DNA of 64,000 bases from a virus, in IMG/VR virus record IMGVR_UViG_3300031963_000006, positions 1 to 64,000 of that record; one strand, 5' to 3'. The notes beneath the pieces were generated by a model. The model did not search any database. It worked only from the letters and a program-made list of their open reading frames with translations, and was not told the origin of the DNA. Positions 18,354-55,510 of the stretch are shown piece by piece (the stretch's first letter is position 1; each line of letters begins with the position of its first letter). Both the position numbers and the translations under genes were made by a program.

Positions 18354-18354
18354 A

Positions 18355-20063: not shown

Positions 20064-20065
20064 AA

Positions 20066-20407: not shown

Positions 20408-20408
20408 T

Positions 20409-35084: not shown

Positions 35085-35333
35085 ATGAGAATTAATATTT
35101 TAACAGAAAATGATAAAGTAGAACAAGTAAGAGAAGCTTGGGTTACTAAAAACGTAATGAAAATTCCAGTATCTCCAACAGGAGAAGAACCAGCAACACA
35201 TTGGTTTTGTTCAATGGCTGGAGAGGAATCCAAAATGATGGAGATTTACAATAAAAAGAATTTATCTATAATGGAATTAGAAATAGGTCCAAAAGAGTTT
35301 CTTAACAAATGGGGTCTGAAGATTATAAAATAA
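35085..35333 (+). CDS. Small hypothetical protein before the oxygenase
   Basis: 82 residues, starting MRINILTENDKVEQVREAWV, with the phrase EEPATHWFCSMAGEESKMME in the middle and a Lys-rich end. No recognised family. It starts 4 nt after the fibre stop and overlaps the following oxygenase gene by 25 nt, so the two are probably translated together. Its N-terminus (ILTENDKVEQV) loosely resembles the LTE tag. Confidence 0.55.
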   Translation: MRINILTENDKVEQVREAWVTKNVMKIPVSPTGEEPATHWFCSMAGEESKMMEIYNKKNLSIMELEIGPKEFLNKWGLKIIK

Positions 35334-36078: not shown

Positions 36079-39000
36079 ATGGCCGTTAAAGTTAAAATAG
36101 GTAGTAATAATTATAGTGGTCAAACCGCAAATATAGTATTTTATCCTGAAACGGGTGGTACTATAAATGTAGGTCAACAAATTATACCATATGATTATGT
36201 AACAGATTATTATTTTGGTACATATGAACTTATCTTTAATGCCGACCAATATACATGTAACTTTACAATATCATCCTCTAATCCATTTCCTGTTTACATA
36301 GAACCAACACCTGGTCCTAAAACGTACATATTGGATGGTACCTACAAACAGGACCCTGAAAATTTACCAACCAATGATTTAACTGGCACGTCATTTAATG
36401 GATTAGAAACAAATATACTTTTAGAAAAATATTTTGCAGGAACTTTTGATGGGGGAATATCTCAATTCAGAATGTACGTTGAGCCGTTATCGGCCCCAGA
36501 AGTGAAACATAATTTCAAGTTACTGAAGGACAGGTTTAACATGTTTAATCCTGATTGTCCTGATTGTTTGTTACCTGAATGTGAAATTACAGGGATTACT
36601 TATCAGTTGGCAACACCTGAACCTACAAGTACAAGGACTCCGACTCCAACAAATACCAAAACTCCAAGACCAACTCAAAATCCGACAAGTACACCAACCA
36701 ATACAAATAATCCAACTCAAACACCGGCCAGCACGTCATGTCCGATTGATACACCTAATGTAACCCCAACAAATACAAAAACACCAACCGTAACCAAAAC
36801 TAACATACCAACAAAAACACCTACAGTTACTCAGACAAAAACACCTGACATTACTCAAACACCAACTAAAACATCAACTCCGACTAAAACACAAACAAGA
36901 ACTAATACCTCTACCCCAACACCAACAAATATTGGTACAACAATTTATTCATCACAAACAAATTGTGATTTAACAAACAATATTACAATTGACGGCCCTT
37001 CGATTTATTATTATGAAATAGACTTAGGAAGTGATGTTGGTTTTGTTAATCTAACGTTTAATGCAACTAATATCCCTGATAGATTTAGAGTCGAATGGGA
37101 TGGTAATGTGGTTATAGATACAGGATTTAGAGGAAATCCATTATATAACACTCAATTAAATAATTTGGGTTATCCTAGTGTGTCAGGGGTTGGTAGCGGT
37201 TTTATAACATTTAATAAAACAGCACCTTCACCAACTACTGTGGTATTAATAGTCGAGTCACCGATTCAAGGGGCAATATATAGTTTTAATTTATCATGTC
37301 CTACACCTTATGTTACAACAACTCCAACAAATACTCCGACAAAAACTGAAACTCCGACTAATACTCCGACAAAAACTGAAACAAAAACTCCTACAGTTAC
37401 TAAAACTGAAACACCAACCCCTACCATTACTAAAACAGAAACCCCAACTGTTACTAAAACACCAACTGTTACTAAAACAGAAACAAGAACTCAAACCCCA
37501 ACGAAAACAGAAACACCAACGGTTACTAAGACACCAACCGTTACTAAGACGGAAACCAAAACACAAACTCCTACAAAGACACAGACGCCAACTTACACCT
37601 CAACCCCAACATCAACATATTATTCTCCAGTGAACTTATTCTTCAGCGGTTGTTGTAATCCATATTATATTTATAGAATTTTCAATGTGCCACTTGTTGT
37701 TTCTGAAACGATAGTTGACGGACAAACATATCTAATTCAAGGTGTCGGATTCTCAGGTTGTGGAACGTATTTCGAATCATTATCATCGGCCGACTTCTCA
37801 TATTCTTATATTAGTTTCTCATCAGAAACTGATTGTGAAACTTGTACAATTGGAAGTCCATGTCCTACTCCAACTCCTACCGTCACCTCAAGTAAAACTC
37901 CAACTAAAACCCCAACCACGACAAAAACACCAACACAAACTCCAACTCCAACAAAAACGGAAACTCCGACTCCGACACAAACAAAAACACCTACTAAGAC
38001 AAATACCAAAACTCCAACAGAAACACCAACTAATACTCCAACAAATACAAATACACCGACTGAAACAGTCACACCTACAGTCACTAAAACTCCAACTAAA
38101 ACAAGTACATCTACACCTACGGTCACTAAAACACAAACTCCAACAAAAACTGGAACACCAACAAATACAAAAACTCCAACTTCAACCAAAACTAATACCC
38201 CTACTAACACACCAACAAAAACTAGTACTAAAACACCAACTTCAACTCAAACTAACACCCCAACAGTTACTCAGACACCAACCACAACACCTACAAACAG
38301 TATCACACCTTCAGTAACTAAAACTAACACACCAACAAGAAGTGTTACCCCAACAGTTACTAAAACAAATACTCCTACACAGACTTATCCTAGTGGACCT
38401 GTGGTTAGTGAATGTTCTGTATTATATAATGACAGTACCCTTGTTTATTCGTACACACCACAAACTAATACAAGTGTGTTACTTCCCGTTACGGGGGCTC
38501 AAAGTGGTAATGATATTGCCCACACTACTTCAAAATTATGGATTAATCCTTCAACAAGTCAAACCATAGATGAATGGAATATATCTTTAAATCCGTTTAT
38601 TGCGGTTTATAATCAATCGATTGTATTACCTCACCCTATTGGTAATGGTTTGGCAGCGATTGATAACACAAGATTAATTTCAAGCAACATATCGGTAAAT
38701 CCTAATACAATTGTTGAATTATTAATTGTTGGAGGAAACTTTGTGTCAACACCTAAAATTACACTTCCTGATGGTAGAATCGTCTCAGGTGATTTATTAT
38801 TAACTACAAATAATAAGTTACTTGTAACAACAACTAATGGTGTAAATACCTTCTTGACTCAATATAATTATGACAACGGACAACCTGAAGTTGAAATTAC
38901 TCTAATAATTCCATTACCATGGGGTATGTTTAGTGATAATGGTAATTTATACATAATGAATGGTCAAACTCCTGGTGGAGTTTATAGGATTAACTTAGAT

Positions 39001-39372
39001 TTCCCATATAATCAAACATTTATTATTAATGCCGGAAGACGGATATCTGGAGCGTCCCAACTACCACAATGTGTTGATGTTAACATCAATCCATCCGGTC
39101 AAACATCTACACAAACCCCAACACCAACTGTTACCCCAACTATAACACCAACGTTGACTGTATACCCCCAACCTTTTGCAATATTCATAGAATGTTGTGA
39201 ACCATTTAGAAAGATAAGGGTATTCAATGTTCCCGCATTAGTATTAGCCGGACTAATATCTGACAATGTATACTATGTTGAAGCTATTGGTTTCTCAGGA
39301 TGTGCGACATATTCGCCATTCTTGACAACTTATGACTTCACTTATGAATATTTAAATATAACAACTCCATAA
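36079..39372 (+). CDS. Giant Pro/Thr-rich modular surface protein
   Basis: 1097 residues. Order: a short N-terminal beta domain (MAVKVKIGSNNYSGQTANIV) with a paralogue at the start of the 50213 gene; a LamG-like remnant (SAPEVKHNFKLLKDRF); a long PT linker (about 175-285); a CDL-type beta domain (about 290-410, FRVEWDGNVVIDTGFRGNP) found three times across two genes; PT linker (412-514); a CCNP/CCEP module (515-590); a very long PT linker (about 595-772); a propeller-like region (about 775-1010); and a final CCEP module (1030-1097, FIECCEPFRKIRVFNVPALV). No protease motif. Probably a filamentous, perhaps glycosylated, receptor-binding spike. Confidence 0.7.
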   Translation: MAVKVKIGSNNYSGQTANIVFYPETGGTINVGQQIIPYDYVTDYYFGTYELIFNADQYTCNFTISSSNPFPVYIEPTPGPKTYILDGTYKQDPENLPTNDLTGTSFNGLETNILLEKYFAGTFDGGISQFRMYVEPLSAPEVKHNFKLLKDRFNMFNPDCPDCLLPECEITGITYQLATPEPTSTRTPTPTNTKTPRPTQNPTSTPTNTNNPTQTPASTSCPIDTPNVTPTNTKTPTVTKTNIPTKTPTVTQTKTPDITQTPTKTSTPTKTQTRTNTSTPTPTNIGTTIYSSQTNCDLTNNITIDGPSIYYYEIDLGSDVGFVNLTFNATNIPDRFRVEWDGNVVIDTGFRGNPLYNTQLNNLGYPSVSGVGSGFITFNKTAPSPTTVVLIVESPIQGAIYSFNLSCPTPYVTTTPTNTPTKTETPTNTPTKTETKTPTVTKTETPTPTITKTETPTVTKTPTVTKTETRTQTPTKTETPTVTKTPTVTKTETKTQTPTKTQTPTYTSTPTSTYYSPVNLFFSGCCNPYYIYRIFNVPLVVSETIVDGQTYLIQGVGFSGCGTYFESLSSADFSYSYISFSSETDCETCTIGSPCPTPTPTVTSSKTPTKTPTTTKTPTQTPTPTKTETPTPTQTKTPTKTNTKTPTETPTNTPTNTNTPTETVTPTVTKTPTKTSTSTPTVTKTQTPTKTGTPTNTKTPTSTKTNTPTNTPTKTSTKTPTSTQTNTPTVTQTPTTTPTNSITPSVTKTNTPTRSVTPTVTKTNTPTQTYPSGPVVSECSVLYNDSTLVYSYTPQTNTSVLLPVTGAQSGNDIAHTTSKLWINPSTSQTIDEWNISLNPFIAVYNQSIVLPHPIGNGLAAIDNTRLISSNISVNPNTIVELLIVGGNFVSTPKITLPDGRIVSGDLLLTTNNKLLVTTTNGVNTFLTQYNYDNGQPEVEITLIIPLPWGMFSDNGNLYIMNGQTPGGVYRINLDFPYNQTFIINAGRRISGASQLPQCVDVNINPSGQTSTQTPTPTVTPTITPTLTVYPQPFAIFIECCEPFRKIRVFNVPALVLAGLISDNVYYVEAIGFSGCATYSPFLTTYDFTYEYLNITTP
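37860..38395 (+). repeat. Pro/Thr-rich linker repeat
   Basis: About 178 codons almost entirely of Thr, Pro, Lys, Asn, Gln and Ser in TPTxTxTPT steps. All four Thr codons and several Pro codons are used, so the peptide pattern is maintained despite drifting DNA. Its reverse strand shows Val/Gly- and Cys/Trp-rich open frames that are artefacts of this composition. Confidence 0.85.
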
Positions 39373-39377
39373 TATTA

Positions 39378-41156
39378 ATGTTTAAAAGTGTAAATATATT
39401 AAAATCAGTTAGCCCCGAAGGAGTTTTTCAATTAAATAAAACTTCATTTGATGACATTTTAAAAAATTCACATTCTAAAATTACATTACAGTTACCGATT
39501 GGAAATGAACTTCATAACTTAGAATTAAACAAATCAGAATTATTTGGGTCTAATTTTTATAGAACTTATAGCTCATCTCAAATCTCACAAAGAAATTTGG
39601 GGTCTCACTATAAAGGTAAATTAAGTGGATTTGAAAATTCATCGGTTGCTGTTTCATTCACTGAATTGGGGGTTGTAGGTTTAATTTTGGATGGTGAAAA
39701 TCAATATGAAATTTCCCCATTTGGTACTGATTCATATAAAGTTTTACCAGTCGAGGGTGTACATGAATTTGAATGTGGGGCCGGTCTTTCCCCGGACTAC
39801 GACGAGGAAAAAAAGAACTCGTTAGAAAACAATCTCAGGTTAAGTTCCAATGGGGATATTTTAATGAAATCCCCAACCGCAACAACAAGATGTCTTAATG
39901 TTTATTGGGAGGCGGATACGGACATATATGACACGCTAGGAGTAAACTCAGAATCATATTTAGCATCACTATTTAACGCGGTACAATTATTATTTTCTAA
40001 TGATGGTATACAAATTTATTTATCTGATTTATTCGTAAATTCAGGAACTTCATTTTACTATCCAACCATTCCATATAATCAAATTGGTACTTTGGATATG
40101 TTATATGAATTTGAGGTGGTTAGACCGACATTTAATGGGGATGCCGCGCAACTTTTTTCATTTAACAAAGGGTATGGTGGAGGAGTTGCTTGGGTTGATG
40201 CGTTATGCGCAAGGCCATACGCTTTTTGTTGGATAACATCGTCATTCCAACAACCAATGACATATAGTTGGACCGTGGCGGCTACAACACATGAACATGG
40301 ACACACGTTCGGTTCACCACACACATTTTCTTGTAGCTGGAATACGAATAATTTTCAACCTGGAGACAATCCCCGAGGTTGCTCAAGAATTGATAGTTGT
40401 AGAATTGAATGTACCGCAATTTTGAGCTCTGGTTGCACTGTGGCTCAACAAAATCCAGGATATGGAACTTGTAGTATAACATCTTCATCAAATTGTGGAG
40501 CATGTTGCGCTCCCAATTATTGTTGTGGAGTCCCTGGAAGTCCGGCTCAAGGTGGAACAATTATGAGTTATTGTCACCAAGTTTCGGTAGGTACTAATCT
40601 GAACTTAGGTTTCGGACCACAACCTAGACAAAGAATGCTCGATGCAATCAATAGCCTACCTTCAACTTGTATAGAATGTTTGGGCCCACCACCTGAAGAA
40701 ACTCTAACACCAACACCAACTCTCACTAAAACACCCACCCCGACACCATCAATAGGTACCAGTCCTAATCCTACCCCAACTCAAACTATAACACCTACTA
40801 AAACAATAACTAACACACCAACTTTAACTAAAACTCCAACACAAACTAAAACACCAACAATAACTAAAACTTTAACACCTAGTATAACCCCAACAATAAC
40901 CAGCACACAAGTCAATAATAATTGTCAGTATTGTTTGAGTTTACATCCATGTACAGTTAATAGGTTTTTTTGGCAATGTTGTGAGCCGTATGATAGTTTT
41001 AGAGTTTATCTAATACCTTTTGATGTTTCAGAGACTCTAGTAAATGGAAATACATATTATGTAGAAGCCGTTGGTTTTTCAGGATGTGCCGTGTATGATG
41101 TAACATTAACAAATGCGGATTTTTCATATGAATATATAAACATTATAACTCCTTAA
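39378..41156 (+). CDS. Metzincin-type zinc metalloprotease spike protein 1
   Basis: 592 residues. Residues 1-140 look like a reprolysin-type prodomain (FKSVNILKSVSPEGVFQLNK) ending in a free Cys at 133 (EFECGAGL). The catalytic domain (about 160-430) begins CLNVYWEADTDIYD and carries HEHGHTFGSPH: His305, Glu306, His309, Gly312 and His315, the full HExxHxxGxxH metzincin site. The Met-turn GGTIMSY follows with Met396. Several Cys between them (CSRIDSCRIECTAILSSGC) suggest disulfides. A short PT linker leads to a C-terminal CCEP module (FWQCCEPYDSFRVYLIPFDV). Likely a virion-borne protease acting on host surface proteins. No signal peptide. Confidence 0.88.
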   Translation: MFKSVNILKSVSPEGVFQLNKTSFDDILKNSHSKITLQLPIGNELHNLELNKSELFGSNFYRTYSSSQISQRNLGSHYKGKLSGFENSSVAVSFTELGVVGLILDGENQYEISPFGTDSYKVLPVEGVHEFECGAGLSPDYDEEKKNSLENNLRLSSNGDILMKSPTATTRCLNVYWEADTDIYDTLGVNSESYLASLFNAVQLLFSNDGIQIYLSDLFVNSGTSFYYPTIPYNQIGTLDMLYEFEVVRPTFNGDAAQLFSFNKGYGGGVAWVDALCARPYAFCWITSSFQQPMTYSWTVAATTHEHGHTFGSPHTFSCSWNTNNFQPGDNPRGCSRIDSCRIECTAILSSGCTVAQQNPGYGTCSITSSSNCGACCAPNYCCGVPGSPAQGGTIMSYCHQVSVGTNLNLGFGPQPRQRMLDAINSLPSTCIECLGPPPEETLTPTPTLTKTPTPTPSIGTSPNPTPTQTITPTKTITNTPTLTKTPTQTKTPTITKTLTPSITPTITSTQVNNNCQYCLSLHPCTVNRFFWQCCEPYDSFRVYLIPFDVSETLVNGNTYYVEAVGFSGCAVYDVTLTNADFSYEYINIITP

Positions 41157-41172
41157 AAAGTATATATAAAAT

Positions 41173-43191
41173 ATGAAACATTTAAGTCTACATAAAAGTT
41201 TTACAAATGATGGTGTTTTTGAATTAAATTTAAATACAATAACCTCACTTAAAACTCAAACTAATGAAAGAATTTATCTGTCTTTACCTATAGATGGGAT
41301 TGAAAAACAAGTTGAAATATATAGAACAAATATTGGGTCCGATGATTTTAAAGTTGTAAATGAATTAGGTCAAATTTTATCGTATGATTCAGGAATTCAC
41401 TACGGTGGTCGGGTCATTGGCTCTGAAAAATCATTTGTTGCATTATCTTTTAGTGATGACGGAATTATCGGAATAGTTCAAGATAATACTAAAGAGTATG
41501 GGTTTACCAAAATAGATGAAAATTTTCATAGACTTCATGAAACGATTAATGATAACGAAGGGTTTGAATGTGGATGTGAATTACTATCACATAATAATAA
41601 TTTACAGGAATTAAAATTATCCCCAAAAACTTTAACGTTACCATATGCTTCTAAATGTATTAATATACGATGGGAAGCGGATTATGATGTGATACAACAA
41701 TTTGGTGGAACGGGTCCGGCCATAACATGGTTGACCGCACTTTTTAATGCACAAAAACAACTTTATGCTAATGATAATATTCAGGTTAATTTAGCCTTAT
41801 TATTCTTATGGGAAAATGGTCCTTCAGGTTTTGTTGTGGGAACAACAGATGTTATACTAGATGCCTATGTAAATTATAGAAATGCAAATGGTGGCATTGC
41901 CGAGAATTGTGGTATGCTACTGAGTTTTGGAACTTCTCCAACAAGCAATTCAGGTGCGGGTATCGCATATGTGGGGGCTCTTTGTGGTCCCAACAAATAT
42001 GGTTATACACAATTAAAAAGAGGAGATTCTACAGGAACTCCTAGTTCTACTGTATATAGTAGAAGTGTTAAAGTAGTTACTCACGAGCAAGGTCACTTAT
42101 TAGGTTCAAGACATACTTTTAGATGTAATTGGAATACCGCTTGGGTATATGGAGATACTACTTTTGGTGCTGAGGCCATTGACGGGACTTCCACGGTAGA
42201 GGTACCTCCAGGAGTTCCTGCGTGTGCTCAACTACCAATACCACCCGGATTTCAAGGAACTATAATGAGTTATGGAGACAGTGCAGGAACCGCTCCGATA
42301 AATTTCGCATTAGGGTTTGGTCCAATACCTAGACAAAGAATGTATGACTTCATTAATAACAATTTTGCGTGTTTAACATGTCAGGCGGTTCCATTTGAAA
42401 CCCCAACACCAACTCCAACAACAATTACTCAAACTCCAACACCAACTCCAACCAAAACACCAACACAAACCCCCACAAAAACTCCAACTAAAACAAATAC
42501 ACCAACTGTAACTCCAACCAAAACATCTACTCCAACACCAACTAAAACTATAAACGCAACACCTGACCCCACTCAAACTCCAACTATAACTAAAACAGTA
42601 ACAAATACAAATACTCAAACCACCACCGTAACACCCACCAATTGTTGTAGTAGATTTACATTAACTTCAGGAGTAAACGACACTGGAGGTAGTACATTTA
42701 ATGTAATTTCATGTAATGGAATCCCGCAAACAACGACTGTACCTCAAGGAACTTCAATAGATATTAATTGCGCATCCACAGTAACATTAACTTCAGGAAC
42801 AGGAACATTTGTAAGATATCCTGGTTGTGTTTGCACAAGTCCAACCCCAACTAAAACTAACACCCCTACAGTAACCCCAACTACCACGATAAATCAAAGT
42901 CCTCAACCGACCCCTACACCAACAGCAACACCAACGGCTACACCTCTTAGGGGAGATTGTGCTTATTGTATAAGTATTTATCCTTGTTCCGTTAGTAAAT
43001 ATTTTACCAGTTGTTGTGAACCATTTGAAAACATTAGAATATTTTTAATACCAGCAAATGTCGCCGACACATTAATAGATGGTGAATCATACTATGTTGA
43101 GGCTGAAGGTTTTTCTAATTGTGCTATTTATAATGAAAGTATAACAACCGCTCAGAATTCGTATAAATATATAAGTATAACCCCTAATTGA
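41173..43191 (+). CDS. Metzincin-type zinc metalloprotease spike protein 2
   Basis: 672 residues, paralogue of the preceding gene. Prodomain 1-140 ([20 protein letters not shown]) with Cys133 in GFECGCEL. Catalytic domain starts [15 protein letters not shown]; active site [11 protein letters not shown] at His304, Glu305, His308, Gly311, His314; Met-turn GTIMSYG with Met365. The insertion between active site and Met-turn is shorter and poorer in Cys than in its neighbours. Then a PT linker, a CCS...PGCVC module (about 490-555), another PT linker, and a CCEP module ([20 protein letters not shown]) at the C-terminus. Starts 16 nt after the previous gene and is followed by a third paralogue. Confidence 0.88.
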
Positions 43192-43202
43192 TGATTTAGT
43201 AT

Positions 43203-46200
43203 ATGAAACAATTGAATTTACTCAGAAATATTAATTTAGATAATTCATTTGAAATTGATGTGTCGGAATTAAGGACTGTATCATCACAGAAATTTGATAC
43301 AATGACTATGTCAATTCCGTTAGGGGGTATTAATAAAAACGTTATTCTAAAAAAAGTTAATATATTTTCTGAGAATTTTACGGTCACTACATCTGATGGA
43401 GAAAATATCGAATGGGATTTGGGTGAACATTATAGAGGAGAAATCGAAGGAGAAGAAAATTCTTTTTGTTCTTTAAGTTTCACAAATAATGAAATATATG
43501 GACATATCGTAACGACTGGCTCAACATATGATATAAATTTTGTCTCAGGCTCAACATACAGAACATCAAGTGTAAATGAAGAAAATCCTATAAATTTTAC
43601 ATGTCATCATGAACCTAAAGAAGGTCAAACATATTCAAATCCATATAACCCTTCTTTAAATACAAAAAAAAACACCGGTCTTAAAACATTAAATCCTTAT
43701 GTTGCAGACCAGGCAACTAAATTGGTAAAAATAGATTGGGTAGTTGATTATGACATACGACTTTTGAAAGGTGCAAATACAGTTTCGTATATAACTTCAA
43801 TTTTTAATGCAACAAAAACTTTATATGAAAACGACGGGATTTTTGTCGTACTTAATTTTTTACACATTTTTACCACATCATATTCACCGTATAGAACAAC
43901 ACCTCTCACGGTACCTATCAATGACGGGTGCGGGTATGGTTCCTGTTCTATGGTTTTATTGTTGTTTAATTTCAGATATAGTTTAGGTAACGGAATTTAT
44001 CCCGCAGGAACTAGCGCGGCTAATTTTTCCGGTGATTTAAAACATTTGTTAACCGCTACTTTTCCAACAACCTCTTTCTCAAATCCTGCTAATAAAATAC
44101 AAGGACTGGCCGATGGTATACAGGTTTTGTGTAACCCAATATCTTCTGATTATACCGTAGTAATTGATGGTCAAGAATATTTGGCGACAAGTACTAATTC
44201 ACCAGTATGTTTCAGTCAAATTGATGTAAATGCAACCGCTAACTCAACAACATATTCATCTACAGTACAAGTAATTACACACGAACAAGGTCATTTAATG
44301 GGTTCAAATCATACCCACGGATGTTACTGGAACACAACCAATTTTGTACCCGGAGGTAACCCAATTGGTTGTAACAGAATTGATAGTTGTGTTACTTTTG
44401 AAACTTATACTTTTTTAGGTTGTCCATCATCAGTTCAAACTGTTTTTGAAATTGTAAATGGTGTGTGTCCTTTTCCGGGCACCCCACCCAACAGTGGTGG
44501 TACCATAATGAGTTATTGTGGTTTAGTCGGAGGAGGAAGTCAACTTTTTACAAACGGATTCGGCCCCCAACCACAACAAAGAATTGTAAATTTCATTAAT
44601 TCATTATCTTGTTTACAGTCGCTAGACACCACACCAACCCCAACTCCTACTTTAACCTTAACCCCGACCAAAACCCCGACATCTACTCCGACTAAGACAA
44701 TCAATGCCACCCCAAACCCAACTCAAACTTCTACAATAACAAAAACATCAACTGTAACTCCCACTAAATCTGTAGGAGTTAGCCCAAACCCAACCACCAC
44801 ACCGACAATAACTCCAACAAATACCGTTACAAGAACTAAAACTAAAACACCAATTTCAACAAATACCACAACACCAACAATAACTCCCACTAATGGTGAT
44901 GATTGTAAAAACTGTACAGACCAACACCCATGTATAACACAAACTCCGACAGTAACTCCAACTCAGCCATGTGATACCGTGATATCACAACCATCAACAA
45001 GTCCATTATTTAATATTGGTTTATCTAAATATAATAACTCAGGGTATACTAACATTGGAACCAGATTTTACTCATACGGATTTCAATTAGGAGGAAGTGG
45101 TTCGACATATTATTTTTCAAACACAAATGATGTATGGAAAAGTACCGACAGTACAAATGGTCCCTTAAACAGAAGTGGTATTTGGTCATTATCTACATTT
45201 CCGTCTAATACTTGGTTGGGATTTTCTTTTTGTATTGATGTTGTTGATTTTGCTAATTTTTATTACGTTGGTTTTGGTGCGGATAATGCCTTTAGATTGA
45301 CTATAGATGGTATCGAAACTATTAACACACTGTTGGGTGGTTATAACAATAGTACTTTGACATTTAGTAATTGGCATGTATATCAGATTCCACTATACCC
45401 TGGTCATCACGTATTGAACGTTTATGGTCTAAATCTATCACAAACAACATCAGGTGTTTTTGGATGTGAAATTTATCAAAATACACTTGATGAATTAACA
45501 GGAGCAACCTCACCCAATAACTTAAACATTATTTTTTCGACTAGCTCTTATTCCGAATCAAATGCCGAAATAATACAATCATCAACTGGTTTACAATTGA
45601 ATAGTGGATATACTTGTCCTTCTGGTTTTGTTTATGAATCGTGTACGGGTGATTGTGTAAGATTCATATCATGTCCACAACCAACTTTGACTCCAACCAC
45701 AACAAACACACCAACTAAAACTAACACAATAAATTTTGTAGGTGTTACACCCACTAAGACACCTACCCCAACTAAATGTTGTTCAACATATATACTTTCA
45801 TCAAGTCCTTCAGATGTTACAGGTTCAACATTTACAATAGTACGATGCGTTGGTAATTTGTTTTTAACTCTACCAGTACCTGTTGGACAATCTCAAACTA
45901 TAACATGTTCATATAATGCAACTTTAATAAATGGATTAGGTTCGATAACACAATTACCTGGTTGTGATTGTAACACGGTTACCCCAACACCAACCCCAAC
46001 CACTATAGAAGATTTGGGCCCCTGCTTCAATCGTTGGATACCAACCTATACGTTCCCTTTTAACCAAAATCAACAAACTGTATTTACCGGTTTTACACAA
46101 GGAATTTTTGTTGAGATGGTACTTTCTGGTTCGGTTGAAATTGCAACCTACAACGGTAATCCTCCAAGTTGTGACGTTATTAGAAGTTTTAATCCTTATA

Positions 46201-49200
46201 CTTTAACCGCATTAAAGCAAGTTTATGCGGGTGGAATTGGGCAAAGTATTTTTAAACAACCAACAGCCCAAAGTGCTTTTGTTATAACATTTAATTTTGG
46301 TCAACCAATTAACGAAGTTACATTAGTTATAGGAGGTTCTGGAACATACGATTTCGGAGGTGGCAACGAAGTTTTTATAATAACAACAAATACTGAAATT
46401 CCAACAATTACATCAAGTATAAATTGTTATACCACAATTAATAACAACCAAATTCTTTCAGGTGCAAATATAGTACCACCACCTGTAGGTTCAGGTACCG
46501 GAGGTGGGTTATTCACTATAAATTGTATTACGGATTATACAACTTTAGTAATATCTGGTGCCGGTGGGTATGATGGGTCTGAAATTTCTATTTGTGAAAT
46601 TTATGTACCAGGTACAACTAGAACCCCAACCCCAACCATCACACGTACAAAAACACCAACTATAACTCCAACCACATCTTTTGGTTTTGTCCCAACTTCT
46701 ACACCCACTATAACACAAACAAAAACCAACACAAATACTTCGACACAAACAAAAACCAACACCCCGACAAAAACACAGACTAAAACACCCGGTTTACCAC
46801 AAAGTCCGACTCCAACACCAACTAATTGTTGTTCTAATTTTCAAATATCACTATTACAAGGATTTAATAGTGCGATTTACAATGTCAGCTCATGTCAAGG
46901 ACAATCAGGAACTTTTACATACACAGGTTTATCCTTTATAACAATAGAATGTGCAACAAACGTTACAAATGTAAGCGGAGCGTCTATTGTTAGGTTACCA
47001 GGATGTGGATGCCCAACACCAACCCCTACTCCAACACTAACTCCAACACCTGTTACACAATGTTCTAATTTAGTTTGGCCTGACCCAACAATAGTTGTGA
47101 ATGGAATAACAATAACTGTTAATAGAACAGGAAATACTTATTTATTAATACAACCACCATCAAATGACAGACCAATTTGTGGTACTGGAATATCAATACA
47201 ATATCCATCGTTATCTTTGGGTAGTGGGTTAAATGGGATAGGTGTTACAGGTCCTCCATCCTTTTTCTCAAATTGGACAGTTAGTTTAACTTTTAGTCAA
47301 CCAATTACAAGTATAACAATCGCATTAAGAGGTGCCGGATGTACATGTCAGTATTCACCAAATGACCCTGAAAATTTCCTATTTACCACAAATACAGGTA
47401 TACCAACAATCAACCCTATCTTAATTTGTAATGGGGTTGTTACAGGTAATGAAATTATATTACACAGTACGGCGCCAATTTGGGAAGGTGGGGTTACTGG
47501 TGACGGAATTTTTGAAATTAAGAACTGTTTAGGGTTTACAAATTTAACAATTACAGGGGACGGAGGTTATTTAGGAACTGCAATAGGAATTTGTGACACA
47601 TCAATTAACCCAAATCAATGTATTACTCCAACACCAACTCAAACAAAAACACCAACTCAAACAAAAACACCTACTGTTACACCAACTTCAGGAGGGGAAA
47701 TTAATCCTTGTCCGTCAATTTTATTACTCCAAAGACAAGAATCTTTTGGTGAATTTTATGTATCATTTTATGACTTTGATTTGAACACCACATATACTTT
47801 GGATGTGCCAAACATAGATGATTTTGTACAAGATATTGCATATACTTTCGATAAACTTTGGACAGTAAAGCCGGCAATTGCCCCTTTTGACCCAAATCCT
47901 GTTGTTGGTTTCAGAGAATGGAATATAACATGGAACCCTTTTGTTGCTACCTATAATAGAGATATACTATATCCTGGTCCGTATATTCCTGGTGATAATG
48001 TAATTTTTGGATTGGGTTTATTTGCAATTAATAATACTACTTTGATAAGCTCATCGGGTTATGATAGTTTTCCAGAGAGAATTATTGAAGTTGATATATC
48101 AACAAATCAAACGGTAATTACCCAAAAAATGGCTCTCCCATCTATGACACAAGCGAGTGGAGACATTTATCTAAGGTCGGATAATTTATTATTTGTTGGT
48201 ACCAAAAATTTCAGTACCGGAGTTTTAGGAGTCAATGTGTATAATTACCTATCAACGTCGAATACTCCCGTATATTCAATTTCGATTCCAATAGGTACTC
48301 CAGGTACGCCTTTCGGAAGCTCGATAGCGGCAATATTTGAATGGGATAATGAGATGTACGTTATGAGAACTCAATCCAATCCAGATAAAACGGAAACTTA
48401 TAGGTTAAATTTAACCCCTCCTGGTAGTGCCGAATATGTAGGTGTATTTAGTAATCTATTCAACGTATTCGGAGGTTCAAGTATAGTTAATTGCCCTACC
48501 CCAACCCCAACTCCTACACTAACATCAACCCCAACAAAAACTACTACCCCAACTCCAACACCAACTAGAACCTTACTAAGTAGTTTATGTTCCGGTCGAT
48601 TTATTGCTCCAACAACATATAACGGTGTTAATGTTACATTCGCATCAACTGGGGACATACAGACTATTTTATCTCCATCGGCGTTATTACCATCTTGTGG
48701 CCAAATGAATTGGAATGGTATACCGGCCTATCTTTGCGGGGCCTCAAGTAATTCTACTTCGACTCCTACAAGTAGTTTTTCACTAACATTTAATTTTAGT
48801 TTATCTGTTAATAACGTATCAATAGTTCTAAACGGTGCTGGATGGGGAGGAAATGAAAATTTTGTATTCACTACTGACACAGGTATCCCAACAATTTCAA
48901 GTACATTTAATTGTTATTCAACAATAATTGGAAACCAAATTATTTCAGGGGCTGGAGCTCCATCAACTCCACCTAATGGGCCTACAGGAGGCGCCGGTGT
49001 TTTCATAATAAATAATACAAACCCATATACATCACTCACAATAACAGGTGCGGGAGGTTATGACGGAACCTATTTAAATATTTGTGATTTTAATGTAGAA
49101 CAAATCACTCAAACCCCAACCCCAACTAAAACTCAAACACCAACTGTGAGTCAAACAGTAACACCTACTAAAACACAAACTCAAACTAACACTACGACTG

Positions 49201-50120
49201 TTACACCAACTAAGACAAACACTATGACACCTACGAGTTCAATTGGTGCAACACCACCTAGTACACAAACCCCTACATCAACATCAACACCAACAGTTAC
49301 CCAAACACAAACAAACACCAAAACAAATACCGTAACACAAACCAAGACTCCAACACAAACCATCGGGATTACCCCTTCAAATACTCAAACTACGACTCCT
49401 ACAGTAACTAATACAAATACAAATACTAAAACTCAAACTCCTACTAAAACTAAAACACCTACTCAAACCTCAACACCAACAACAACTTTACCAAAAACTC
49501 CTGACCAAACATTAACACCAACAACCACTCCAACTGTAACTAAAACCAAAACTCAAACACCATCTAATACAACAACTCAAACTCAGACTCCATCATCATC
49601 TGGACCTTGCCGAGCCCCTCAAGTTTTGTCAACAATCAGAACTGCCACTAGAATTTATAATGGATGCACTTGTATTGACCCAATTACAAGAGGGTGTAAT
49701 GAAACCTTCGGGAATTGTAGCAACTGTCCGGTCGGAAGTACTCAAGGGTGTTCACCTAATTGTGCTTGTTTTTCAAATTTAATAAACATCGGAACAGTTG
49801 GGAATGATTATAACGATAACGCAGGTTGTTCGTGGTATTCGGATTTTATGAATTTTACTAATAGGGCGGTACTACCTGTTGAAATTAAAGTAGAGGGTAA
49901 TATTACTAACTGGACTCAATTACAAGTCGGGATGAGAGTCTATCCAGGTAATCAATCACCTAACAACCCATGTGGTCAGGCGGCAGTTCGTAATTATTGG
50001 GTTAGTTCAAATTCGTTATTAAATTATTATAGCGATTTAGAAGGTCCTCCGGTAATTGTTCGAGTTCAAACAATCAATGGAATTAATCAAATAACATCAA
50101 TTTGGCAATGCACGGGTTAA
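43203..50120 (+). CDS. Giant metzincin protease fused to a multi-domain adhesin
   Basis: 2305 residues. Prodomain with Cys134 (NFTCHHEP); catalytic domain with HEQGHLMGSNH (His360, Glu361, His364, Gly367, His370) and Met-turn GGTIMSYCG (Met436). After a PT linker come a PA14/lectin-like domain (about 600-830, FDIGVDV-like core VDFANFYYVGFGADNAFRLT), two CCS...PGCxC modules (858-924, 1207-1270), three copies of a beta domain with GxGGYDG...ICxx endings (about 940-1135, 1285-1470, 1793-1967), a propeller-like module (1500-1765), a long PT linker (1967-2130) and a Cys-rich C-terminal domain. No CCEP ending, unlike its two paralogues. The largest gene in the window; it probably forms a long multivalent spike. 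Confidence 0.85.
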   Translation: MKQLNLLRNINLDNSFEIDVSELRTVSSQKFDTMTMSIPLGGINKNVILKKVNIFSENFTVTTSDGENIEWDLGEHYRGEIEGEENSFCSLSFTNNEIYGHIVTTGSTYDINFVSGSTYRTSSVNEENPINFTCHHEPKEGQTYSNPYNPSLNTKKNTGLKTLNPYVADQATKLVKIDWVVDYDIRLLKGANTVSYITSIFNATKTLYENDGIFVVLNFLHIFTTSYSPYRTTPLTVPINDGCGYGSCSMVLLLFNFRYSLGNGIYPAGTSAANFSGDLKHLLTATFPTTSFSNPANKIQGLADGIQVLCNPISSDYTVVIDGQEYLATSTNSPVCFSQIDVNATANSTTYSSTVQVITHEQGHLMGSNHTHGCYWNTTNFVPGGNPIGCNRIDSCVTFETYTFLGCPSSVQTVFEIVNGVCPFPGTPPNSGGTIMSYCGLVGGGSQLFTNGFGPQPQQRIVNFINSLSCLQSLDTTPTPTPTLTLTPTKTPTSTPTKTINATPNPTQTSTITKTSTVTPTKSVGVSPNPTTTPTITPTNTVTRTKTKTPISTNTTTPTITPTNGDDCKNCTDQHPCITQTPTVTPTQPCDTVISQPSTSPLFNIGLSKYNNSGYTNIGTRFYSYGFQLGGSGSTYYFSNTNDVWKSTDSTNGPLNRSGIWSLSTFPSNTWLGFSFCIDVVDFANFYYVGFGADNAFRLTIDGIETINTLLGGYNNSTLTFSNWHVYQIPLYPGHHVLNVYGLNLSQTTSGVFGCEIYQNTLDELTGATSPNNLNIIFSTSSYSESNAEIIQSSTGLQLNSGYTCPSGFVYESCTGDCVRFISCPQPTLTPTTTNTPTKTNTINFVGVTPTKTPTPTKCCSTYILSSSPSDVTGSTFTIVRCVGNLFLTLPVPVGQSQTITCSYNATLINGLGSITQLPGCDCNTVTPTPTPTTIEDLGPCFNRWIPTYTFPFNQNQQTVFTGFTQGIFVEMVLSGSVEIATYNGNPPSCDVIRSFNPYTLTALKQVYAGGIGQSIFKQPTAQSAFVITFNFGQPINEVTLVIGGSGTYDFGGGNEVFIITTNTEIPTITSSINCYTTINNNQILSGANIVPPPVGSGTGGGLFTINCITDYTTLVISGAGGYDGSEISICEIYVPGTTRTPTPTITRTKTPTITPTTSFGFVPTSTPTITQTKTNTNTSTQTKTNTPTKTQTKTPGLPQSPTPTPTNCCSNFQISLLQGFNSAIYNVSSCQGQSGTFTYTGLSFITIECATNVTNVSGASIVRLPGCGCPTPTPTPTLTPTPVTQCSNLVWPDPTIVVNGITITVNRTGNTYLLIQPPSNDRPICGTGISIQYPSLSLGSGLNGIGVTGPPSFFSNWTVSLTFSQPITSITIALRGAGCTCQYSPNDPENFLFTTNTGIPTINPILICNGVVTGNEIILHSTAPIWEGGVTGDGIFEIKNCLGFTNLTITGDGGYLGTAIGICDTSINPNQCITPTPTQTKTPTQTKTPTVTPTSGGEINPCPSILLLQRQESFGEFYVSFYDFDLNTTYTLDVPNIDDFVQDIAYTFDKLWTVKPAIAPFDPNPVVGFREWNITWNPFVATYNRDILYPGPYIPGDNVIFGLGLFAINNTTLISSSGYDSFPERIIEVDISTNQTVITQKMALPSMTQASGDIYLRSDNLLFVGTKNFSTGVLGVNVYNYLSTSNTPVYSISIPIGTPGTPFGSSIAAIFEWDNEMYVMRTQSNPDKTETYRLNLTPPGSAEYVGVFSNLFNVFGGSSIVNCPTPTPTPTLTSTPTKTTTPTPTPTRTLLSSLCSGRFIAPTTYNGVNVTFASTGDIQTILSPSALLPSCGQMNWNGIPAYLCGASSNSTSTPTSSFSLTFNFSLSVNNVSIVLNGAGWGGNENFVFTTDTGIPTISSTFNCYSTIIGNQIISGAGAPSTPPNGPTGGAGVFIINNTNPYTSLTITGAGGYDGTYLNICDFNVEQITQTPTPTKTQTPTVSQTVTPTKTQTQTNTTTVTPTKTNTMTPTSSIGATPPSTQTPTSTSTPTVTQTQTNTKTNTVTQTKTPTQTIGITPSNTQTTTPTVTNTNTNTKTQTPTKTKTPTQTSTPTTTLPKTPDQTLTPTTTPTVTKTKTQTPSNTTTQTQTPSSSGPCRAPQVLSTIRTATRIYNGCTCIDPITRGCNETFGNCSNCPVGSTQGCSPNCACFSNLINIGTVGNDYNDNAGCSWYSDFMNFTNRAVLPVEIKVEGNITNWTQLQVGMRVYPGNQSPNNPCGQAAVRNYWVSSNSLLNYYSDLEGPPVIVRVQTINGINQITSIWQCTG
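49105..49600 (+). repeat. Pro/Thr-rich linker repeat
   Basis: About 165 codons of TPTxTxTPT type before the C-terminal Cys-rich domain of the giant protease. Interrupted by short IGATPPS and IGITPS steps; similar steps (VGVSPNP, IGTSPNP, INATPNP) punctuate other linkers here, suggesting a composite repeat with a longer-range unit. Confidence 0.8.
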
Positions 50121-50212: not shown

Positions 50213-53200
50213 ATGTCCCAATCAATTGTTATAGAGTATATAAATTTTAGTGGAGAGACTGCGGTAATTTTATTCACCCCATTTGGTGAAACCGATGTTA
50301 TTAATTTAGGTACCGTTATACTACCGTATGACTTTAATCCTTCATTATTAACACCCCCAAAAGATATTTATGGTTCATATAATGTTATAACTTCAGGAGG
50401 AAGTTGTTCAAATATAGTTACAATTTTACCGACCACACCAAACCAAACACGAACACCATCAAGGACCCCAACACAAACAAAAACTCAAACAATTACCCCG
50501 TCAAATACCGAAACCCCTACCGGTACCCCATGTCCGACTAAAACATCAACTCCGACTAATACCCAAACGCCAACCTTACAGCCAACTGAAACTCCAACAT
50601 CAACTTTATGTCCTACTAAAACCCCAACTGAAACTCCTAAAAGTACATTAACACCTACTAAAACGCCAACTCAAACTAAAACTCAAACGTCTACCCCAAC
50701 CAATACACCAACTAATACCAAAACACCGACCAAAACAAGTACCGAAACTCCGACTAATACTCCTACTAAAACAGAAACTCCAACCCAAACTAAAACCGAA
50801 ACACCTACAAAAACCCCTACAAAAACAAATACTCAAACACCCACTAATACTCCAACTAACACCGGAACTCCAACTCCAACTAACACCGGAACTCCAACTC
50901 AAACTAAAACGAGTACCCAGACTAATACAAGTACGCCAACTAAAACCGAAACCCCGACCCAAACTAAAACACCAACCATAACCCCAACCCAAACTAAAAC
51001 CCAAACCACGACTCCAACACAAACAAAAACCCCTACCCAAACAAAAACAGGTACTCCAACACAAACAAAAACAGGTACTCCAACAAAAACTAATACACCA
51101 ACTCAAACAGTTACACGTACAGTAACAAAAACATCATCCCAAACCCCAACTCCAACAACAACACCTCCAGGTGAGTATACAGGTACTAACGTTTGTGACC
51201 AATACATAGTAGTTTCAGATGGCTATAGAGGGACTCGTCAATTCCAAGTTGATATCGGTTCTCAGATTGGGTCATTAAATATATTTTTTAATGCCGGTAA
51301 TGTTCCTGATAGATTTTACTTCTATTACGATGGCGTATTAGAAAGAGATACAGGATTTAGAGGTGACCCGTCATTTAACCCTCAACTGAATTCCGCCGGT
51401 TATCCTTCTGTGAATGGTGCGGGAACCGGTTCTTTTGTGTTTAACAAATCCACATCTTCCCCAACAACCATTGAAGTTATCGTTTTTTCCCCATTCGAGC
51501 CTGTTGATTTTAACTTATATATCTCATGTCCTATACCTGAACCAAGTCAAACTCCGACTAAAACTCAAACACCTACTAGTACTCAAACTAAAACACCGAC
51601 AAAATCAATAACTCCAACAAAAACTTCAACTCCAACTATAAATCCATCACAAACCCCAACAAAAACCCAAACTCAAACTAAAACACCCACAAAGACATCA
51701 ACCACTACACAAACTCCTACAAAAACTTCAACACCTACACAAACACCAACATCGACGCCTCCATTTGAATTTAGTGGTACCGCAGTGTGTGACCAAAAAT
51801 TCTTTGGTTCTCCTTCAGATTATGGAACATTGTATTACACAATAGATGTTGGAAGTGAGATAGGACCTATAATTTTAAATGTAAATTCCAATTTAACCCC
51901 TGTTTGGTTTAGATTATATTGGAATTCAACATTAGTTATTGACACAGGATTTATAGGAAATCCATTGTATAATACCGAATTGAACAATTTAGGTTATCCT
52001 GATGTATCCGATACTGGTTTAGTTTCAATTTCATTTGATAAAACATTATCATCACCAACTGAAGTTATATTAGAAATAGTTGTTCCAATTTTAGGGGCGT
52101 CATGGAATGCTCTAGTTGAATGTCCGTCAGTCACTCCAACACCAACTCCAACAATGACCCAAACTAAAACCCCAACAATAACTTCAACTAATACTCCAAC
52201 AAATACCAATACTCCAACTCAAACTAAATCACAAACCCCAACAAATACAAATACACCAACTGTTACTAAAACGGTTAGGGCTACTTTAACCCCAACTCAA
52301 ACCCAAACTTCAACCATGACTCAAACTAGAACTCAAACAAAAACTCCAACAAATACTATAAGTCAAACCCCAACTCAAACCCAAACTCAAACCCCAACTA
52401 ACACTCAAACCCCAACTAACACTCAAACGGATACACCAAGGTCAACTAGAACCCCAACCGCAACTCCAACTGACCCGCCTCCAACTCCCCCATCGACAAA
52501 TACTCCAACGCAAACAAAAACAAATACTACAACTAATACCTCCACACCGTCTCAAACTGCAACACAGACTAAAACTCCTACTCAAACTACAACCCAAACT
52601 AAAACATCTACTCAGACCCCAACCCAAACTAAAACATCTACTCAGACCCCAACACCAACAAGAACTCCAGATGTATCTCCTCCATCAACACCTAGTCCAA
52701 CACCAACAAATACAGGAACTCAAACAAGTACCCCAACAAATACTCAGACTCAAACTCAAACTCCAACAAATACTCAGACTCAAACTCAAACTCCTACAAA
52801 TACGCAAACTCAAACTAATACTCCTACAAATACGCAAACTCAAACTAATACTCAGACTCCGACTAAGAGTCAGACACCAACTAACACCTCAACTAAGACA
52901 CAAACACCAACTCCGACCCAAACTTCACCAACTGCCGTTCCTTGTGCCTCTGAATGTATGATATTATTTAATACATCAACTGATTTATATGTTTATGATT
53001 TTACTGCCGATACATCAACTCAGATAACACCGGCAAACTTATTTGAAAGTGATGATATTGCTCACTATTGGAATCCAATTACAAATGATGGTAGACTTTG
53101 GATATACGGTAATCAAGGTTCGGGTAATCAATACTTTAGAGAATTTAGAATAACATCAATATGTCCATTTACTTTTGACCCTGATTATGGAGGTACAGGA

Positions 53201-55510
53201 ATTAATTATAGAAATATTCCATTCCCTGTTGGTATGCCGAGTCCTTTAGGGAATGGTTTAACCTACTTAGAAACTACCGGAGGTCAACACGTTTTAATTG
53301 GAAGTTTAACTCTAATAACCCCTAATAAGATGGTTAAGTTTTTTATAAACTCAACCGCTTTACCATATACCTCATCTTATACCGAGCTATTTGAAATATC
53401 TTCAGCGGTATTAACACCTGACATTGTTTATGGTGATGTTATTGTGACTAATAATTTGGCTGCGGGAGGACAAAAAATAGTATTTACAAAATATGACCCA
53501 TCACTTCCAGGTACTTCGTACCTAACACAATATGATTATAATGGTTTATTTTATGAATTTGACACTAATCCTATAGGACAAAATTCTCCACCATTAGCAA
53601 CTAACAATATAAATCAACCTCAAGGGTTATTCCAATGGGAGGGGTTAAATTATGTAATACAAAGTAATACCGGTGATGTTTATAACGTTAATGGTAATAT
53701 TCCATATGATAGAACTTTAGTTGGAAATGTCGGACAAATTAATGTTAGAGGTGCTTCTCAGACAATTAATTGTTTGGGTAATAATTTAAGTGGAGGGACT
53801 CCTTATTTTAGATATTCGAATAGAACCGATTTTGCCCCAATAAATAATGAATATGTACAAAGTCTTATACTGGTTAACGGTATTAAAGAATTTGATGTTG
53901 ATTTTGGCGATGGTACTATTATTAATTACAACACTACTTTAACGGATGTTACACAAACTCACGTTTATTCACCGTTAGCTCAAGTATATACCGCCACAAC
54001 ATATGGATTTAAATTAAATGGTAGTAATAACCCAAATATTATTAGTGTTGCTTCAGATATATCTATTAGATTTAGAAATATTTCAGAATTGTTAGCAGGT
54101 GACGATGACCCATATACTTTTGGTTCTTTCCCTGGAATGCTGGGCCTAAGATTTGAAAATTGTAGTTTTGCTAATTTGAACTCAGTTGAGACCTCTCCAT
54201 ATTTTACAACCATTCAATTTGACGGACATGATAACCAATTATTAGAACTTAATACTTTTAATTTAGGTTCTAAAACTAAGTTGGAACAAATTTTTATGGC
54301 TAATTGTGATATGACAGGATTTTCTCATGATTTAACATCAACTTTATTAAATCAAGGAGCGTCTGCCTTTAATTTTTTAAACAATCCACTCCTATCTGAG
54401 GTCAATATTGAATTACCAACAACAATATTAACATATTTTGGATTAAGAACTTCAAACAATATTTCCTCATTACAATCAATTAATAGTTTAAATGGTTTTG
54501 AAAATCTAACAGGATTAACCAAGATAGATGTTCAAGGTAATATTTTAACAGGGTGGACATATAATTTACCTGAAAATTTAATTGAATTTGATATTTCTGA
54601 TAATGCAAGACCTATTCTATTTGCACCAAATCAGTATGGTATAAGAGAATTAAATATTGATTTAACAAATAACGATAAATTAGAAATTTTAAATGTTTCT
54701 AGAAATAGACTTACGGCAATTACTGACACAATTATAAACTGTATAGTTTTGGATGAATTATATTTGGAAATAAATCAATTAACTACTATACCTGATTTAC
54801 CAAATTCAATTACTAGATTAGAATTACAATATAATTCTTTAGTAACTTCGTTTACATCTTACTTACCAAATAATTTACAGGTTTTCTATGGTTATAATAA
54901 TTCAAATATAACAGATTGGACTATACCTTTAACAAATACTCAGTTAACCACGTTCTATGTTTATAGTTGTAATATTTCAGGACCTTGGGATACCCAATTC
55001 CCAAGTACTATAAGAAATATTAGATTAGATGGGAATGATATTACATCGATTAATATAAACTTAGTGAATGGTGCAACCACACTTATAATGTCAGATAATA
55101 CCACATTAACACAGATGACTAATTTATCATCCAATTCTACTATCCAAACTTTAGAATTAAATAATTGTGGTTTCACAAGCTTCTCTAATTTGTTTTCAAC
55201 AAGTTTACCTTCAACTTTAAGGGTATTTAAATTTGATGAAAATCCAATAATTGGTTCGACATGGCCCACAAATGCCTTTTTGAACGCTAATATTAATAAC
55301 GTAGTTATGAGACGTTGTGGTTTAGATACGACATCAGTGAACAGAATCATAAACGACATTGCGGCAACAACTACCGCCACCAACGGTACTCTTAATTTGA
55401 GTAACCTAGGAGTTACTAATGGAACCCCTAATTCACCAAGAGATTCGGGTAGTGATGATGCATTAGCCATTTTACAAGCCGCCAATTGGACGGTTACAAC
55501 CGCACCTTAA
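50213..55510 (+). CDS. Giant Pro/Thr-rich spike with propeller, PKD-like and leucine-rich repeats
   Basis: 1765 residues. N-terminal domain (about 1-70, [20 protein letters not shown]) paralogous to that of 36079. A very long PT linker (74-320), beta domain ([18 protein letters not shown], 322-440), PT linker, a second copy ([14 protein letters not shown], 520-638), a 270-residue PT linker, a propeller-like module (about 910-1190), a PKD-like unit (VDFGDGT and THVYSP, near 1223-1250) and a C-terminal leucine-rich repeat region (about 1330-1760) with units such as [23 protein letters not shown] and [14 protein letters not shown]. LRRs are protein-binding surfaces, so the distal end may recognise a host protein. 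No protease motif. Confidence 0.75.
50430..51175 (+). repeat. Pro/Thr-rich linker repeat
   Basis: About 248 codons of TPTxTxTPT repeats, the longest uninterrupted of the leading linkers. Near-identical short units occur in tandem (for example [16 protein letters not shown] and [16 protein letters not shown]), showing local duplication in addition to the general pattern. Confidence 0.85.
52125..52935 (+). repeat. Pro/Thr-rich linker with 30-bp tandem units
   Basis: About 270 codons. Between about 52738 and 52857 four 30-nt units stand in tandem: two nearly identical units containing ACTCAGACTCAAACTCAAAC, then two containing ACGCAAACTCAAACTAATAC. Just before, a unit containing ACTAAAACATCTACTCAGAC is duplicated (about 52590-52650). 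These point to recent copy-number change by slippage or recombination. Confidence 0.8.

What the first reader, a model, noticed from the sequence alone, without database searches (positions are those of the whole stretch)
39378..50120. Three tandem metzincin metalloproteases on phage spike proteins
Three consecutive genes each have a complete HExxHxxGxxH motif and an (G)GTIMSY Met-turn at about the right distance (61-91 residues later). Metzincins fused to PT linkers and adhesin modules in the tail region are very unusual; phage virion enzymes are normally depolymerases or muramidases. They could cut host S-layer, gliding adhesins or other outer-membrane proteins during entry, or process neighbouring spikes.
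Basis: partly seen in the sequence, partly recalled or inferred. Interest (0 to 1): 0.87.

Follow-up and report, generated by a model that had tools for sequence, protein, structure and literature searches.

The report
Tandem ADAM-like proteases on phage fibres
A large virus of (probably) Bacteroidota bacteria carries three side-by-side genes for ADAM/snake-venom-type zinc proteases, made without a secretion signal and joined to long fibre-like adhesin stalks, which suggests that it carries protein-cutting enzymes on its particle to reach or attack its host.

Summary
Three co-directional ORFs (39378-41156, 41173-43191, 43203-50120) each encode an ADAM-type prodomain, an M12B (reprolysin/adamalysin) metzincin domain with HExxHxxGxxH and a GTIMSY Met-turn, then Pro/Thr linkers and adhesin-like modules. 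Pfam Reprolysin_5 passes its cut-off in all three. The AlphaFold2 model of the first is closest to the human ADAM17 zymogen (Foldseek E 2e-12). The prodomain cysteine (candidate cysteine switch) is present in all 50 aligned relatives. Bacterial relatives (mostly Bacteroidota) carry signal peptides, and many carry T9SS tails; the phage copies have neither. The record is a 215-kb contractile-tailed phage. In a relative whose flanking proteins are mostly 89-98% identical, the proteases are only 31-43% identical, differ in number and order, and carry swapped C-terminal modules, as host-recognition genes do. Virion location is inferred, not shown; shared modules and a crassvirus muzzle-metzincin fusion in another contig support it. 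No relative was found in 50,697 phage records, PHROGs or BFVD, but IMG/VR holds about 30 other M12B-bearing viral contigs, mostly with signal peptides. Best reading: virion-borne, latent proteases that cut host surface proteins. The substrate is unknown.

The parts
39378..41156 (+). Protease P1, 592 aa: prodomain, M12B catalytic domain, PT linker, C-terminal beta module ('knob')
   Evidence: Pfam Reprolysin_5 7.8e-13; AF2 model, Foldseek top hit ADAM17 zymogen
39774..39776 (+). P1 Cys133 in FECG: candidate cysteine switch at the end of the prodomain
   Evidence: Invariant in 50 of 50 aligned relatives; the model is low-confidence at 130-142
40290..40322 (+). P1 zinc motif HEHGHTFGSPH (aa 305-315)
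40554..40571 (+). P1 Met-turn GTIMSY (aa 393-398)
40680..40922 (+). P1 Pro/Thr linker (aa 435-515)
   Evidence: mostly pLDDT < 50 in the model
40923..41153 (+). P1 C-terminal 'knob' module, about 62 aa core
   Evidence: Module HMM; AF2 pLDDT 87, no PDB fold match
41173..43191 (+). Protease P2, 672 aa: prodomain, M12B, PT linkers, knob
   Evidence: Reprolysin_5 3.8e-11; knob at aa 609-670
41569..41571 (+). P2 Cys133 (FECGC), candidate cysteine switch
42082..42114 (+). P2 zinc motif [11 protein letters not shown] (aa 304-314)
42256..42273 (+). P2 Met-turn GTIMSY (aa 362-367)
43203..50120 (+). Protease P3, 2305 aa: prodomain, M12B, then about 1700 aa of PT linkers alternating with adhesin-like modules
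   Evidence: Reprolysin_5 1.3e-6, above cut-off; orthologue in G001
44280..44312 (+). P3 zinc motif HEQGHLMGSNH (aa 360-370)
44499..44516 (+). P3 Met-turn GTIMSY (aa 433-438)
36079..39372 (+). Sister fibre-like protein without protease: N-terminal 'NYSG' domain, PT linkers, a module shared with Flavobacterium/Cellulophaga phage proteins, two knobs
   Evidence: first 177 aa 93% identical in G001
50213..55510 (+). Sister fibre-like protein without protease: NYSG domain, PT linkers, two IPDRF modules, weak C-terminal LRR match

Best explanation
P1-P3 are latent M12B zinc endopeptidases carried on the phage particle as fibre-like proteins. They act on protein outside the cell, most likely host surface proteins, during adsorption. 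SHOWN by sequence and model: prodomain plus metzincin zymogen architecture with intact zinc and Met-turn residues; no signal peptide and no T9SS sorting tail; head-to-tail genes beside non-protease PT-fibre genes that share their modules; rapid divergence and module swapping between near-identical phages. INFERRED: the prodomain cysteine holds the zinc while the enzyme is in the reducing cytosol; the protein is incorporated through its PT stalk or C-terminal knob, with the catalytic head free; after lysis the conserved cysteines oxidise, the prodomain is cut and the protease becomes active. It would then work as tail-spike depolymerases do, but on protein (S-layer, T9SS-exported adhesins, matrix). 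Three paralogues with different adhesin tails would widen the range of surfaces.
For: Catalytic family. Candidate cysteine switch: (C133 invariant in 50 of 50); ADAM17 prodomain is the best PDB sequence match and ADAM17 zymogen the best fold match. Conserved non-switch cysteines; P2 has lost Cys341 and Cys399 together, as expected for a disulfide pair. No export: P1-P3 N-terminal hydrophobicity maxima are 0.27-0.77, against mostly 2-3.5 in bacterial relatives; the stop-to-stop frames leave only 10, 1 and 1 extra codons upstream; no Por_Secre_tail hit. Phage context: tail sheath, baseplate wedge. Shared modules: knob in P1, P2 and the sister protein; the sister's IPDRF module matches phage proteins annotated as virion structural and occurs in the same polypeptide as a metzincin in L138. 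Precedent for a virion fusion: Reprolysin_5 plus crassvirus muzzle PF25731 in one 2979-aa ORF. Host-interaction behaviour: flanking proteins mostly 89-98% identical to G001, proteases 31-43%, number, order and tails changed. Codon positions 1+2 are 61-62% identical against 43% at position 3 between orthologues, so they are constrained proteins.
Against: No proteomics, so virion location is inference. The proteases lack the 'NYSG' N-terminal domain of the sister fibres, so how they would attach is unknown. The cysteine-switch loop is low-confidence in the model (pLDDT < 50 at 130-142). The knob has no structural homologue. Most other viral M12B proteases found carry signal peptides, so phages also use this family as exported enzymes. 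The 'virion structural' note on phi13:2 gp120 is itself by similarity. No substrate is known.
Confidence: 0.5

Rival explanations
1. Soluble lysis-released proteases: made in the cytosol, freed at lysis, not part of the particle; they digest surface protein, matrix or receptor on debris and neighbouring cells.
For: No signal peptide; no known virion-anchoring domain on the proteases; zymogen suited to late activation.
Against: PT stalks and knobs are shared with neighbouring fibre-like genes; a fusion to a muzzle protein exists elsewhere.
Confidence: 0.2
2. Maturation proteases: they cut their own or neighbouring PT fibres during assembly or infection (spike processing), not host protein.
For: Adjacent to several very long fibre-like proteins.
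Against: Related loci L103-L105 have the PT fibres but no protease match in the contigs held; three divergent copies and fast turnover are unlike a housekeeping maturase. Those contigs are fragments, so absence is not proven.
Confidence: 0.12
3. Exported or host-display enzymes (auxiliary genes expressed during infection), as in other phage contigs with signal-peptide and T9SS-tailed M12B proteases.
For: That type is common in IMG/VR: L114, L121, L124, L142-L144, L152, L153 and the L177 triple array; L143 has Por_Secre_tail.
Against: P1-P3 and the two G001 copies have no signal peptide; P1-P3 have no room upstream for one and no sorting tail; they form one clade apart from the secreted viral ones sampled.
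Confidence: 0.08
4. Degenerate, non-catalytic binding domains retaining a metzincin fold.
For: One G001 copy has Asp for the motif Gly (HEQGHAFDSPH); prodomains are more diverged than catalytic domains.
Against: The three His, the Glu and the Met are invariant in all five full-length phage copies; a bacterial relative also has Asp at that Gly.
Confidence: 0.05

Closest known systems
ADAM/adamalysin (MEROPS M12B) zymogens, e.g. human ADAM17 and snake-venom metalloproteases
   Same: Prodomain plus metzincin fold, HExxHxxGxxH, Met-turn, candidate cysteine switch
   Different: Phage-encoded, no signal peptide, PT linkers and phage modules instead of disintegrin/Cys-rich domains
Secreted M12B proteases of Bacteroidota (e.g. 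the Flavobacterium aquatile locus L029)
   Same: Homologous from prodomain to Met-turn, 27-33% identical, same cysteines
   Different: They carry signal peptides and often T9SS-type tails; phage copies lack both and form their own clade
Crassvirus muzzle fused to a metzincin (L178:1499-10438, found here)
   Same: M12B domain in one polypeptide with a phage structural protein
   Different: Metzincin near the C-terminus of a muzzle; few PT repeats; very long, unplaced branch in the tree
Tail-spike/tail-fibre depolymerases
   Same: Proposed role: phage-carried enzyme acting on the host envelope; modular and fast-evolving
   Different: Those I know of are polysaccharide- or peptidoglycan-active (own knowledge); here a protease at the N-terminus of a PT stalk
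Listeria Mtz/Tim metzincin-TIMP pair of phage origin (PMC8235301)
   Same: A phage-derived metzincin whose expression enhances phage-mediated lysis
   Different: Secreted, paired with a TIMP-like lipoprotein, proposed to act through the cell wall; not on a fibre

Membership tests
Peptidase family M12B (adamalysin/reprolysin) | HExxHxxGxxH zinc motif | tested here: met
   all three
Peptidase family M12B (adamalysin/reprolysin) | Met-turn downstream of the zinc motif | tested here: met
   GTIMSY in all three; Met invariant in 50 sequences
Peptidase family M12B (adamalysin/reprolysin) | Family profile match above curated cut-off | tested here: met
   PF13688 in all three
Peptidase family M12B (adamalysin/reprolysin) | Adamalysin fold | tested here: met
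   Foldseek to ADAM17, SVMPs, ADAM8/33, E 1e-12 to 1e-6; P1 only
Peptidase family M12B (adamalysin/reprolysin) | ADAM-type prodomain with cysteine switch | tested here: inconclusive
   Prodomain matches ADAM17 and the Cys is invariant, but the loop is not modelled with confidence
Peptidase family M12B (adamalysin/reprolysin) | Zinc-dependent peptidase activity | not testable with these tools
   needs assay
Pappalysin (M43) | Profile match above cut-off | tested here: not met
   PF05572 only in P2, 16.9 bits against cut-off 23
Serralysin (M10B) | Better match to serralysins than to adamalysins, RTX C-terminus | tested here: not met
   No serralysin or RTX family reported; PDB alkaline metalloprotease E 0.04 against 0.0012 for SVMPs
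T9SS-secreted Bacteroidota proteases | Signal peptide and Por_Secre_tail | tested here: not met
Phage virion fibre/spike proteins | Modules shared with phage structural proteins | tested here: inconclusive
   Knob shared with the fibre-like neighbour, whose IPDRF module matches annotated virion proteins; the link is indirect for P1-P3
Phage virion fibre/spike proteins | Presence in purified particles | not testable with these tools
   needs proteomics

The most novel reading that the evidence does not exclude
Large Bacteroidota phages carry hypervariable arrays of ADAM-like zymogen proteases on flexible Pro/Thr stalks as protein-cutting counterparts of depolymerase tail spikes. The enzymes are kept latent by a cysteine switch and the reducing host cytosol, and switched on by release from the cell.
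Probability: 0.35. Interest if true: 0.88.

Novelty: new variant of a known kind. Interest (0 to 1): 0.74.

Why it matters
If right, phage host-entry enzymes extend from sugar and peptidoglycan hydrolases to ADAM-type proteolysis, with host surface proteins as substrates and protein layers as barriers that phages can breach. It offers a phage zymogen whose trigger could be tested directly, suggests a source of proteases naturally fused to adhesins, and suggests that M12B enzymes have entered phages more than once (PT fibres, crassvirus muzzle, exported forms).

Tried and rejected
Chance motif: rejected by profile, fold and orthologues. Diversity-generating retroelement as the cause of array divergence: no reverse transcriptase (PF00078) in G000 or G001. 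Third G001 match (bases 12-89): reads as an archaemetzincin-like fragment, not this family (by eye). Knob as a known binding fold: no PDB match. Promoter/terminator scan: no more sites than in shuffles. Relatives in named phages: none for P1, P2, the P3 tail, the knob, or two secreted viral proteases. Literature for M12B/metzincin phage tails: nothing relevant beyond the Listeria locus. Precise dN/dS: synonymous sites saturated. PHROG hits on PT linkers (phrog_15511) were not used as evidence, because they fall on the low-complexity repeats.
Full report
THE OBSERVATION. The stated interval bounds three whole ORFs of 592, 672 and 2305 aa, head to tail with gaps of 16 and 11 bases, and 5 bases after the upstream gene. 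Each has HExxHxxGxxH and GTIMSY, with first-His-to-Met spacings of 91, 61 and 76. Pfam Reprolysin_5 is above cut-off in all three, and these are the only matches in the 215,250-bp record.

WHAT THE PROTEASES ARE. A profile of the three protease regions finds the ADAM17 prodomain and snake-venom metalloproteases among the PDB sequences. A 50-sequence AlphaFold2 model of P1 gives a confident prodomain and metzincin core, with a low-confidence PT linker. Its best fold matches are ADAM17 zymogen structures (E 2e-12), then venom proteases, ADAM8/33 and profragilysin. All zinc ligands, the catalytic Glu and the Met are invariant over 50 sequences. So is a cysteine at the prodomain end (FECG, FECGC, NFTCHH), which is where a cysteine switch would be; the model does not resolve that loop. 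P2 lacks Cys341 and Cys399, both present in the other 49 aligned sequences, which suggests a lost disulfide pair.

ORIGIN. The nearest cellular relatives are secreted proteases, almost all of Bacteroidota. Most start with a clear hydrophobic signal segment, and many end in T9SS-like tails; the phage proteins have neither, and their open frames leave only 10, 1 and 1 codons upstream. Phage copies from this record and from IMGVR_UViG_3300042555_002820 (G001) form one clade with SH-aLRT 100; a third record, L106, joins it. One ancestral acquisition followed by duplication explains this, subject to the quick tree method and the limited bacterial sampling.

THE PHAGE. Tail sheath, baseplate wedge, DNA polymerase, UvsX-like recombinase, DnaB-like helicase and ribonucleotide reductase mark a contractile-tailed phage. 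Bacteroidota hosts are likely, from the protease relatives and from the Flavobacterium/Cellulophaga phage matches of a neighbouring module; the host is inferred.

SURROUNDINGS. Genes 36079-39372 and 50213-55510 are PT-rich fibre-like proteins without a protease. Module HMMs show that the C-terminal knob of P1 and P2 also occurs twice in 36079-39372, once in another PT protein of this genome (143998-147519, minus strand), and in related contigs; a 72-aa 'NYSG' domain starts many of the non-protease fibres and none of the proteases. The IPDRF module of the neighbours matches phage proteins annotated as virion structural (the annotation is by similarity). The knob is confidently modelled as a small beta domain with no PDB relative.

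TURNOVER. G001 is collinear with window 0.5-36.7 kb, apart from 17215-22349. Most shared proteins are 89-98% identical, with a few low exceptions (38-79%). Immediately beyond the first 177 aa of gene 36079 (93% identical) similarity collapses: G001 has two proteases, not three, in the reverse order (P3-like, then P2-like), 43% and 41% identical to their orthologues over the BLAST alignments (P1 only 31% to its best match). The P3 orthologue carries the knob that P3 lacks, and the P2 orthologue ends in a leucine-rich-type tail (by eye). There is no reverse transcriptase, so no retroelement-driven diversification was detected. This pattern is that of host-recognition loci. Codon positions show the genes are constrained.

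HOW GENERAL. No relative is found in 50,697 named phage records with six different queries, PHROGs gives no hit on the protease region, and BFVD has no fold match. IMG/VR, scanned by Met-turn patterns, holds about 30 other viral contigs with this protease family; 27 of them, besides this record and G001, were confirmed with Reprolysin_5. Most carry signal peptides, including contigs with tail sheath or terminase genes and one with three tandem signal-peptide proteases. Two others bear on virion location: L138, one 2766-aa protein with metzincin, PT linkers, IPDRF modules and a VWA domain, and L178, where Reprolysin_5 and the crassvirus muzzle profile lie in one 2979-aa ORF.

MECHANISM. The most likely course, with steps marked: synthesis in the cytosol as a zymogen (architecture shown, latency not); latency by the prodomain cysteine (inferred); attachment by stalk or knob with a free N-terminal protease head (inferred; the reverse of usual N-terminal anchoring); oxidation and prodomain removal after release (inferred); cleavage of host surface protein at adsorption (inferred from turnover and adhesin modules). 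Rivals are soluble release at lysis, fibre maturation, export, and loss of catalysis.

VERDICT. Enzyme identity about 0.97; particle association about 0.7; host-surface substrate about 0.5. A known enzyme family in a new deployment. The report rests on metagenomic contigs; I know of no experiment on these proteins.

Noticed in passing
L178:1499-10438 (IMGVR_UViG_3300030101_002520): One 2979-aa ORF matches the crassvirus muzzle protein (PF25731) at its N-terminus and Reprolysin_5 at aa 2275-2467, with HELGHNIGSSH and TIMSYC: a metzincin fused to a tail-tip protein.
   Followed up: partly
L177:4356-20000 (IMGVR_UViG_3300008459_000008): A second array of three tandem M12B proteases in a terminase-bearing viral contig, here with signal peptides and FN3-like repeats.
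   Followed up: partly
L138:286-8586 (IMGVR_UViG_3300042564_003366): A 2766-aa PT-linked protein with a metzincin and a VWA domain; its N-terminus reads like a trypsin-like serine protease (NNHV...GDSGSALV), judged by eye only.
   Followed up: partly
window 35309-35938: 209-aa protein with an HxD...H...R pattern like 2OG-Fe(II) dioxygenases (by eye; no Pfam or PDB sequence hit), conserved beside PT-fibre genes in several phages: a candidate modifier of the Pro/Thr linkers.
   Followed up: partly
window 4820-28984 (minus strand): Long run of minus-strand genes that includes nucleotide-sugar epimerases, an aminotransferase and a glycosyltransferase next to the fibre locus; about 5 kb of it (17215-22349) has no match in G001. 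Possibly glycosylates the PT stalks.
   Followed up: no
G000 about 142600-152500 (L008/L009, minus strand): A second PT-fibre locus in the same genome using the same NYSG, knob and IPDRF modules.
   Followed up: partly
L107:12-89 (G001 start): Truncated archaemetzincin-like sequence (HEVGHTLGLVHC...CLM), unrelated to the M12B array.
   Followed up: no
L107:4416-5444, 7887-8387, 8519-9643: Phage-contig proteins with signal peptides, one with a T9SS-like C-terminus: this phage group may also export proteins through the host.
   Followed up: no
L106:3-1766: In a related contig the protease with PT linkers is fused to a glycosyl-hydrolase catalytic core match (PF11790), so two enzyme types may share one fibre-like protein.
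   Followed up: no
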